Below are positions 21,738 through 26,750 of a stretch of 64,000 nt of DNA, one piece after another; within the stretch, counting starts at the first letter, position 1; each line of letters starts with the position of its first letter. Location: NCBI GenBank assembly GCA_001577635.1, contig LSBP01000009.1:1-64000 (forward strand), given 5' to 3'. The notes under the pieces are model-generated. The model searched no databases. It was not told the DNA's origin and saw only the letters and a list, made by a program, of their open reading frames with translations. The stretch comes from Halomonadaceae bacterium T82-2 (GTDB lineage: Bacteria; Pseudomonadota; Gammaproteobacteria; Pseudomonadales; Halomonadaceae). The translations under genes and the position numbers were made by a program.

Positions 21738-24700
21738 TTGTTGGGCGAGTCCATCACGTTTCCCGAGGCCGGGCTGGGCCAGGCATCTGCCCGGATGCTT
21801 CGCGACGACGGCCTGACGCGCCTGTTGCGCCTGGAAAGCGACGGCACCGCCCCGCGGCTGGTCAAGCTGCGTTCCGGCGAGCCTTCCCCGCGCAAGACGG
21901 TCTGCCTCTACAACGATCACCAGACCCTGCAGGCTCACCCCCTGGAGTGCGCCCTGTCCCTGCAGCGCTTCGAAGGCCAGGGCGCCAACGCCATGCTGCT
22001 GTTCAACGACCCCGGCGGCACGACTCTCGACCGGCTTCCCGTGCCGACACCGGAACGTTGGGTGGAACTCGCCCTGGAGATGGTCGATGCCCTCGATGAG
22101 GTGCACCGGGCCGGCCTGCTTCACCGCGACCTGCGTCTCGACAGCTTCCTGCTGTCCGGCTCGCGCCTGTATCTGATCGACTTCTCGCAGGCGGTACGGC
22201 TCAAGCAGGAATATCACGAACTGCAGGCCCTGGACGACGACCTGGCACGGCTGCGCTACATGGCGCCCGAACTCTCCGGGCGTCATCGCTACCCGGCGGA
22301 TTACCGGTCCGACTACTACAGCCTGGGCGTGGCGCTCTACCAGCTACTGACCGGTAGCTGCCCCTTCCGCGCCGATACCCCCCACGCCCTGGTCTATCAG
22401 CATCTTGCCGAACCGCCCCCCGCGCCACAGCGCCACGACCGGCCACTGCCCGAGCTGCTGACGACCCTGCTCCAGCGGCTGCTGGCCAAGGACCCCGGCC
22501 GGCGCTATCAGGACGCCGACACCCTGAGCCACCATCTGCAACGGATCGGCGCGGTCCTGCGCGGCGAACTGGACGACGACCCCGCTCACCTCGTCGACCC
22601 GCACGATACGGCCCGGCAGACGACCCACGGCCGGGTACACGGCCGCGAGGTCGAGCGTCGCCGGCTGCTCGATGCGCTGGCACGCGTCGACGGCGGCCGG
22701 CCCCAGTGGCTGTGGGTCACCGGCGCCTCGGGACTCGGCAAGACGGCGCTGATCCGCGAGACCTACCCGCCGGTGACACGGCGCAACGCCTTCTTCCTGT
22801 CCGGCAAGTTCGACCAGCTGCGTCGCGGCCGGCCCTACAGCGCCTGGACGGAAATGCTGGAAAAGCTGGTGACCTTTCTGCTCGCCGAACCGGGCGACGC
22901 CCTTCAGGCCTGGCAGGCCCGGCTTCACGAGGCGCTCGGTTCCCAGGCCCGTGCCCTGAGCGACCTGATTCCCTCCCTGGAGCGCCTGCTCGGCGAGCTG
23001 CCCGAACCGGCCGAACTGCCGGCCGGCGAAGCGCGCGAGCGCCTGCACGGCCTGCTGCTGCGCTTTCTCCAGGCCATCGGCCGGGCGGAGCGCACCCTGG
23101 TGCTGTTTCTCGATGACCTGCAGTGGAGTGATGCAGCCTCGCTGGCGCTGCTGGAAACCCTGGCCCGGCGCCTGGACGGAACGCCCCTGCTGCTGATCGG
23201 CGCCTATCGCGACAACGAGGTCGACGCCACCCACCCGCTGGTCCTGACCCAACAGGCAATCGAACGCCATCTCGGCCGGGCGGTGGATACCATCGCGCTG
23301 TCGCCCCTCGGCCCCGAACAGGTCACCGCCCTGCTCGCCGAGACCCTGGCCACCCCGCCCGAGCCGATCGCCACGCTGGCCGAGGAAGTCCACGAGCGTA
23401 CCGGCGGCAACCCGCTGTTCATCGAACAGCTGCTGCGTACCCTGCTCGACAACGACTGGCTGACCCGCGACGTGCAGCAGGGGTGGCAGTGGAACATGGC
23501 GACCCTGCGCGAGGCCCCCTACGCCGAGCATGTCGTCGGCCTGATGCTGCAGCGCTTCACCCAGCTCCCCGACGCCTGCCGCGAGTTGCTGGCCTGGGCA
23601 GCGTGCCTGGGTGGCGAATTCGAGCTCGAGATGCTCGGCTGGCTCGCCGACGCCCCTCTGCCCTGCATTCACGAGCGCCTGCAGCCGGCGCTTGACGAGG
23701 GGTTCCTGCTGCCGGCAGGCGAGCCGGTACTGCATGAGGGCCGAGTGGTCGCAGGCCGGCTGCGCTTCTTCCACGATCGCATGCAGGAAGCCGCCCAGCG
23801 TCTGCTGGCCAATGCGACGATCACCGCCCTGCACTACCGCATCGCCCACCTGCTGCGCCGCCACCTCGATGAGGACGCAAGCAAAAAGCAGGCCATGATG
23901 CTGGCCGGACACCTGCGCCTGGCCGCTCCCCACCTGAAGCAGTCGGCCGAACGCCTGTGGGCAGCCCGGGGCGGCCTGACAGCCGCCGAACAGGCCAGGC
24001 GCGCCGCCGCCTTCGCCGATGCGCTCGCCTATCTGCGCGACGCCATGGCCCTGCTGCCCGATGCCCCCTGGCGCGACGTGCCCGACCTGGCCTACCGGAT
24101 GTACAGGGAGCGTGGCGAGCTCGAGGCCCTCAACAGCCACTTCGAGACCGCCGAGCTCTTCATCGGCGAGGCCATCGCGCACGAGCCCGAGGCGTTTCGC
24201 CGCGCGGCCCTGCTGCGCATGCGGGTCGAGCAGTCCACACTGCGTGCCGACTATCCACGGGCCATCGCCGCCGCGCGCCAGGGGCTGGCGCTGCTCGGCG
24301 CGGCCCTGCCCGAGCGGGCCTACGCCGAAGCCCGCGATACCGAGCTCGCCGCCATCCGCCGCCTCCTGGCGGGTCGCTCGCTGGACACCCTCGCACAGCT
24401 GCCACCGATGACCGACCCACGCCAGCGGGCGATCATGCAGCTGCTGGCCAGCCTGGGACCGCCCTGCTATCGCTCCCACCCCGACCTGTGGTCGGTGATC
24501 GTCGCCCGCGAGGTGCGGTTGTGCCTGGAACACGGTAGCGTCGCGGCCGCCGCCTACAGTTATCCGGCCTTCGGCGGCCTGCTGATGCACCTGGGGCGCG
24601 GCGACGGCGAGGACTGCGCCGCGCTCTACCGCGCCACCCACCTGCTGCTGCGCGACCTGCACGGCGCCGATGCCAGTGTCGGCCACCTGATGATGGGTAG

Positions 24701-26750: not shown

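What the first reader, a model, noticed from the sequence alone, without database searches (positions are those of the whole stretch)
21738..26750. 1670-residue pseudokinase-STAND ATPase-GAF-GGDEF fusion that ends in an intact diguanylate cyclase
Seen: a kinase-like N-terminus whose catalytic asparagine is Ser136 and whose DFG is DFS, with no clear glycine loop; a good Walker A and B; long helical repeats; GAF; coiled coil; GGEEF with an RxxD inhibitory site. Known: multi-domain kinase/AAA/GAF proteins exist, usually with an active kinase or histidine kinase. Inference: here the kinase part may be a sensor or scaffold and the output is c-di-GMP, joining Ser/Thr-type and c-di-GMP signalling in one polypeptide.
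Basis: partly seen in the sequence, partly recalled or inferred. Interest (0 to 1): 0.72.

Follow-up and report, generated by a model that had tools for sequence, protein, structure and literature searches.

The report
Kinase-like STAND receptor ending in cyclase
A very large bacterial signalling protein joins a probably impaired protein-kinase domain and an immune-receptor-like ATPase switch to an enzyme that looks able to make the messenger c-di-GMP; it belongs to a known family whose output end is swapped often, so it is interesting but not a new kind of system.

Summary
The ORF is real (21738-26750 +, 1670 aa) and its domains are as described: kinase-like, AAA_16, helical repeats, GAF, GGDEF with GGEEF and RxxD. 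Structure prediction gives a complete two-lobed kinase (PknA/PknB-like) and a STAND module (MalT/Apaf-1-like) with a TPR-like superhelix. "Pseudokinase" is not settled: Asn136 is Ser, but Lys43, Asp131 and Asp148 remain, and DFS is a published trait of cyanobacterial STK-HisK proteins. Two orthologues (52-53%) in another order keep the domain order and also lack the Asn (Thr, Ala). The architecture recurs: 23 of 71 relatives scanned match GGDEF, 40 HATPase_c, 8 class III cyclase; on a tree GGDEF changes at least 7 times. Kinase-residue loss is no commoner with GGDEF (8 of 20) than without (24 of 52). A kinase-TPR-GGDEF protein was in print in 2005. The gene is a clean single-gene insertion; no full-length copy was found in 13 other genomes of the genus. 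Most likely: a STAND receptor whose nucleotide-driven assembly pairs GGDEF domains, with a weak or inactive kinase domain as regulator. New member of a known kind.

The parts
21549..21737 (+). Upstream stretch that came in with the gene (62% GC); no sigma-70-like promoter or terminator pattern found; AAGGGGGG just before the start
   Evidence: Homology to sister genome G062 stops at 21548
21738..26750 (+). 1670-aa kinase-fold / STAND NTPase / TPR-like / GAF / GGDEF protein (predicted diguanylate cyclase)
21774..22604 (+). Kinase-fold domain, about residues 13-289: Lys43 in the third N-lobe strand, HRD Asp131, Asn-to-Ser136, DFS 148-150, APE 176-178
   Evidence: Pfam Pkinase 108-265; AlphaFold2 model pLDDT 83.6, pTM 0.85; PknA/PknB matches
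22635..24014 (+). STAND NTPase core, about residues 300-759: Walker A 329-336, Walker B 456-460, GGNP motif, winged-helix-like part
   Evidence: AAA_16 300-487; model pLDDT 85.5; MalT and Apaf-1 matches; GGNP in window and both orthologues
24015..25607 (+). TPR-like helical superhelix, about residues 760-1290
   Evidence: All-helical in the model; matches Rap receptors and APC/C TPR proteins
25665..26117 (+). GAF domain, residues 1310-1460
26118..26246 (+). Linker, likely coiled coil (not computed), residues 1461-1503
   Evidence: Sequence; 53-63% identical among the three orthologues
26247..26720 (+). GGDEF domain, residues 1504-1661, GGEEF 1583-1587, RxxD 1574-1577

Best explanation
A receptor of the family with kinase-fold, STAND NTPase, TPR-like and GAF domains and exchangeable outputs, here with a diguanylate cyclase. 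Proposed working: the TPR-like superhelix (perhaps with the GAF) senses a ligand; the STAND NTPase exchanges ADP for ATP and self-assembles, as MalT and Apaf-1 do (recalled); this brings the GGDEF domains together so that paired active sites make c-di-GMP, with the RxxD site giving product inhibition. The N-terminal kinase-fold domain is catalytically weak or dead because the Mg-binding Asn is gone, and serves as a regulatory or partner-binding module. Shown by computation: domain order, motif residues, kinase and STAND folds, conservation in orthologues, repeated change of output in the family, insertion of the gene in this genus. Inferred: cyclase activity, STAND-driven dimerisation, the signal, and the role and inactivity of the kinase domain.
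For: GGDEF at E 1e-45 with GGEEF, kept in both orthologues. Kinase-fold model matches PknA/PknB at Z about 27 over 248-259 residues. Residues 290-1286 model as STAND plus helical superhelix: MalT Z 22.3, 372 aligned, 4.2 A; Apaf-1 Z 21.2, 431 aligned, 7.3 A; STAND-TPR protein 6mfv Z 20.8; superhelix like Rap, Z 22.8. Asn lost in 3 of 3 clade members (Ser, Thr, Ala), kept in the nearest relative outside the clade, L175. Kinase domain conserved like the rest. REC-EAL gene beside the orthologue in G603.
Against: Lys43, Asp131 and Asp148 are present, so phosphotransfer cannot be excluded. No experiment, no known ligand. The REC-EAL neighbour is seen in 1 of 2 orthologue genomes, 305 nt away, and not at the window locus. 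The structure models rest on 8 and 9 sequences and show no oligomer. Helical repeats match many unrelated proteins.
Confidence: 0.6

Rival explanations
1. The kinase domain is active despite Ser136, and the protein phosphorylates itself or a partner: a true dual Ser/Thr kinase and diguanylate cyclase.
For: Lys43, Asp131, Asp148, Glu178 and Asp192 are kept; complete bilobal fold; DFS is common in published STK-HisK proteins.
Against: The Asn is kept in 98.9% of cyanobacterial STKs and in 57 of 72 scored family members but in 0 of 3 of this clade, replaced by three different residues, which reads as relaxed constraint; no Gly loop; the alpha-C Glu position is Asp60 here (Asp in L141, Glu in L142).
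Confidence: 0.25
2. The GGDEF domain is a c-di-GMP sensor or dimerisation part rather than an enzyme, and the output is a protein-protein contact.
For: The RxxD site could bind c-di-GMP (read).
Against: The active-site sequence is intact and scores far above the cut-off (155.8 against 23.8 bits); degenerate GGDEFs are the usual receptors (recalled); both orthologues keep GGEEF.
Confidence: 0.08
3. An acquired gene with no role in this host, kept by chance.
For: No full-length match in the 13 other genomes of the genus; clean insertion at a junction that is empty in four of them.
Against: Open over 1670 codons, GC3 0.87 against 0.84-0.93 for most neighbours measured, with the motifs of switch and cyclase intact.
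Confidence: 0.07

Closest known systems
Cyanobacterial dual STK-HisK proteins (cbSTKIII; HstK, Pkn40/41 of Anabaena)
   Same: Kinase domain with GAF; Gly of DFG often Ser (PMC2176072, section 6 and passages; PMC1262709, passages and section 19)
   Different: They end in a histidine kinase, are 'KD' kinases, and cyanobacterial STKs nearly always keep the Asn; here HRD, Ser136 and GGDEF. Their sequences were not compared here
Clostridium thermocellum 1826-aa STYK with TPR and GGDEF (Krupa and Srinivasan 2005)
   Same: N-terminal kinase domain, six TPR repeats, C-terminal GGDEF in one chain (PMC1262709, passages)
   Different: AAA and GAF not mentioned in the passage seen; by the methods passage, sequences without the catalytic Asp were set aside; sequence not compared here
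Actinobacterial relatives L035, L036, L037, L043 (Frankiaceae, Micromonosporaceae)
   Same: Kinase-fold, STAND and C-terminal GGEEF in one chain; GAF not checked one by one
   Different: 28-35% identical; 3 of 4 keep HxD, Asn and DFx Asp; separate supported branch of the tree
Fungal CHK1/Mak2/Mak3 histidine kinases
   Same: Ser/Thr-kinase-like, AAA_16 and GAF domains (PMC9069115, passages); Pfam PF25503 TPR_CHK1 matches 2 of 71 bacterial relatives
   Different: Output is a hybrid histidine kinase; eukaryotic
MalT and Apaf-1 (STAND switches)
   Same: STAND NTPase fold with following repeats
   Different: MalT output is DNA binding, Apaf-1 output is caspase recruitment (recalled); neither has a kinase or cyclase

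Membership tests
Hanks-type Ser/Thr kinase fold | Two-lobed kinase fold | tested here: met
   Model 1-300 pLDDT 83.6; PknA/PknB Z about 27, 2.7-3.3 A over 248-259 residues
Active Hanks-type kinase | All of Lys (beta3), HRD Asp, Asn, DFG Asp | tested here: not met
   Lys43, Asp131, Asp148 present; Asn is Ser136
Pseudokinase in the usual sense | Loss of at least one of Lys, HRD Asp, DFG Asp (recalled definition) | tested here: not met
   All three kept in the window protein and both orthologues
Pseudokinase in the usual sense | No phosphotransfer | not testable with these tools
   Needs an assay
STAND NTPase | P-loop NTPase with Walker A and B, GxP motif (recalled), winged helix, then repeats | tested here: met
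   GASGLGKT, FLDD, GGNP; MalT and Apaf-1 fold matches
STAND NTPase | Nucleotide-dependent oligomerisation | not testable with these tools
   Needs an assay
Diguanylate cyclase | GG(D/E)EF active site in a GGDEF domain | tested here: met
   Pfam E 1e-45; GGEEF 1583-1587
Diguanylate cyclase | c-di-GMP synthesis | not testable with these tools
   Needs an assay
STK-HisK dual kinase (HstK type) | C-terminal histidine kinase | tested here: not met
   No HisKA or HATPase among the Pfam matches of the window protein
Wider kinase - AAA_16 - repeats - GAF - output family | This domain order with exchangeable output | tested here: met
   Window domains; relatives over the kinase-STAND-repeat region end in HATPase_c, GGDEF, class III cyclase or EAL

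The most novel reading that the evidence does not exclude
An inflammasome-like c-di-GMP switch: a STAND receptor with a Rap-like TPR sensor assembles on ligand into an oligomer that directly drives a second-messenger cyclase, and the Asn-less kinase domain has become a nucleotide- or partner-sensing gate of that assembly instead of an enzyme.
Probability: 0.2. Interest if true: 0.7.

Novelty: new member of a known kind. Interest (0 to 1): 0.38.

Why it matters
If the mechanism holds, c-di-GMP can be the output of a STAND receptor, the class of switch that also runs plant and animal immune receptors, and the family gives a natural set of swapped outputs (histidine kinase, GGDEF, class III cyclase, EAL) on one receptor body. 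The unknown signal of the HstK/CHK1-type proteins would then be testable through an easy read-out, c-di-GMP. Loss of one or more of three kinase residues in 32 of 72 scored members, the window protein included, also asks what the kinase domain is for in this whole family.

Tried and rejected
Association of kinase decay with GGDEF output: HRD Asp, Asn and DFG Asp all kept in 12 of 20 GGDEF members and 28 of 52 without GGDEF, Fisher p 0.79; on the 62 scored members whose C-terminus was held complete, 12 of 19 and 24 of 43, p 0.78. Rejected as a rule. Rows dropped: of 87 ORF groups, 13 had no Walker A hit by my pattern and 2 lacked the kinase stretch, leaving 72; 10 of the 72 are short or run off the sequence held, so for 9 of those the output was not fully seen. 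The 87 groups hold a few fragments (for instance two pieces of one gene in L145) and one row, L104, that matches over the kinase part only. My alignment put the beta3 Lys one column off for the window clade, so Lys was read by eye and not counted. Asn loss is not unique to this clade: it is seen in 15 of 72, 12 of them elsewhere, two with Ser.

Defence-system reading: the 25 of 30 PADLOC matches shown (PD-T4-6, mad6, MkoA) all lie within residues 27-302, a resemblance that any Hanks kinase may give; not pursued.

Sequence search of solved structures for residues 300-1287 found nothing at E 0.01; only the fold search found relatives.

Mobile-element cause of the insertion: no shared direct repeat longer than 7 bases between the junctions, no promoter or terminator pattern. 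Cause unknown.

Literature: kinase, AAA, GAF and GGDEF word sets gave 0 papers. 'pseudokinase' with 'GGDEF' gave 2 papers, by title and start of abstract about Caulobacter (listing only). Searches were other word sets (listings). Papers outside that open-licence library were not searched.

Full report
1. Observation. The ORF 21738-26750 (+) encodes 1670 aa from TTG, with an alternative ATG at codon 20. Pfam finds Pkinase 108-265, AAA_16 300-487, GAF 1310-1460 and GGDEF 1504-1661. The gene follows a 2OG-Fe(II) oxygenase gene on the same strand and lies tail to tail with an enoyl-CoA hydratase gene.

2. The kinase domain. Pfam sees only the C-lobe, but an AlphaFold2 model of residues 1-300, made with seven relatives, has an N-lobe too (pLDDT 83.6, pTM 0.85) and matches M. 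tuberculosis PknA and PknB at Z about 27 over 248-259 residues. Lys43 lies in the strand 40-45. Lys43, Asp131 and Asp148 are kept in the window protein and both orthologues, while the Asn is Ser, Thr and Ala in the three. The nearest relative outside the clade, L175 (histidine-kinase output), has HKDINISN and DFG. So the Asn was probably lost at or near the base of this clade, on the branch on which the output also differs from that relative; this is one event and proves no link. The Gly of DFG is Ser in 30 cyanobacterial family III (STK-HisK) proteins (PMC2176072, section 6 read), so DFS by itself means little; the same section gives 98.9% conservation of the Asn. My reading: catalysis is probably impaired, not proven absent.

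3. The middle. Residues 290-1286, modelled with eight relatives (pLDDT 85.5, pTM 0.81), give a STAND NTPase with a winged-helix-like part and a long helical superhelix. Best matches: MalT (8bob, Z 22.3, 372 aligned, 4.2 A), Apaf-1 (3sfz, Z 21.2, 431 aligned, 7.3 A), the STAND-TPR protein 6mfv (Z 20.8, 609 aligned, 8.6 A) and, for the superhelix, Rap peptide receptors (8rsv, Z 22.8, 352 aligned, 5.2 A). Helical repeats match many things (APC/C and separase chains are listed too), so the Rap likeness is a lead only.

4. Orthologues. In 54 genomes of another order of the same class, two (G402, G603) hold proteins 53% and 52% identical over residues 19-1665 and 19-1664. By domain, identity among the three is 47-57% (N-lobe), 44-46% (C-lobe), 57-58% (AAA), 42-47% (rest of STAND), 59-65% (TPR-like), 45-71% (GAF), 55-63% (GGDEF), and only 9-48% in the 24-residue linker 276-299. 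The kinase domain is thus as constrained as the rest. In G603 the next gene on the same strand, 305 nt downstream, is a REC-EAL phosphodiesterase; in G402 none of the four neighbours scanned was a c-di-GMP gene.

5. How common the architecture is. A search with residues 1-1286, blind to the output, matched at E 1e-40 in 18 of 369 genomes of the class, our own included (at most two candidates scored per genome). Of the 25 listed proteins other than the window's, 8 have a GGDEF domain, one of them cut by the contig end; 3 of the other 17 (L128, L135 and L122/L182) run off the sequence held. Relatives from all searches fell into 87 ORF groups, a few of them fragments. The 71 with a complete end and at least 1250 aa were scanned: GGDEF in 23, HATPase_c in 40, class III cyclase in 8, EAL in 2 (a protein can match more than one). 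My own GGDEF profile finds 24 of the 87, 22 of them among the 71, one fewer than Pfam. Several searches used the full-length query, so the GGDEF share in the 71 leans upward; the blind figure is 8 of 25. On a tree of residues 290-960 (82 rows; 4 short rows dropped) GGDEF needs 15 changes, at least 7 forced by starred branches; the window clade has 100 support and joins the HK-ending L175 at 98. It is a quick tree: 26 of 79 inner branches are open.

6. Kinase state and output. HRD Asp, Asn and DFG Asp are all kept in 12 of 20 GGDEF members and 28 of 52 others (p 0.79); on members held complete, 12 of 19 and 24 of 43 (p 0.78). A link between a damaged kinase and a c-di-GMP output is not a rule of the family; loss of kinase residues is common with either output.

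7. Origin in this genome. The 13 other genomes of the genus have best matches of E 1e-31 to 1e-38, GGDEF only where the place is listed, so no full-length copy (two candidates scored per genome). In four of them (G062, G098, G019, G091) the oxygenase and hydratase genes lie side by side, 29-57 nt apart by match ends. In G062 homology stops at 21548 and resumes at 26757. In three others both genes are present but about 9-36 kb apart; in four the hydratase and in two the oxygenase was not found at the cut-off. So one gene with about 190 nt of upstream DNA was probably inserted cleanly; loss in the sister species is the less simple alternative. Its GC3 (0.87) is like that of most neighbours measured (0.84-0.93; one ORF 0.69). 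More distant relatives (27-34% identity) occur in seven of the other genomes of the family sample.

8. What is known. PMC1262709 (2005; passages and section 19) describes a C. thermocellum kinase-TPR-GGDEF protein, draws the inference of c-di-GMP output from such fusions, and describes STK-HisK dual kinases. PMC9069115 (passages) gives the same front-end domains for C. albicans CHK1, where removing the kinase-like and ATPase domains together resembles the null mutant in a mucosal model, so the front end matters in a relative. The searches listed no paper on this Asn-less clade.

9. Verdict. A real, well-formed protein; a new member of a known family with a recurrent output. A STAND-driven diguanylate cyclase is likely but untested. 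The kinase part is best called Asn-less and probably impaired. Interest 0.38.

Noticed in passing
21549-26756: Single-gene insertion between a 2OG-Fe(II) oxygenase gene and an enoyl-CoA hydratase gene; the junction is empty in four sister genomes.
   Followed up: yes
L234:3263-4462 (-): REC-EAL phosphodiesterase gene downstream of the orthologue in G603, same strand, 305 nt away.
   Followed up: partly
Whole genome G000: 31 matches to the query in a 3.4-Mb genome, 29 of them to the GGDEF domain only: a rich c-di-GMP network.
   Followed up: no
G000:C25:104478-105800: A protein matching residues 293-767 (the STAND part) only, in a 949-aa frame of the same genome.
   Followed up: no
Relatives in alignment A1: 8 of 71 relatives match an adenylate/guanylate cyclase domain and 2 match EAL, so the same receptor body seems to feed several second messengers.
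   Followed up: partly
L006/L210, L186, L187, L189, L208, L177: Relatives in the same family or order with HKQ instead of HRD in the kinase loop: a clade that lost the catalytic Asp; an HK motif was seen in L007, L008, L009 and L146, pieces of four of them.
   Followed up: partly
L009, kinase domain: Insert of over 50 residues between the catalytic loop and the DFx motif.
   Followed up: no
54215-57370: ORFs of about 1050 aa on both strands over the same stretch, probably an effect of high GC.
   Followed up: no
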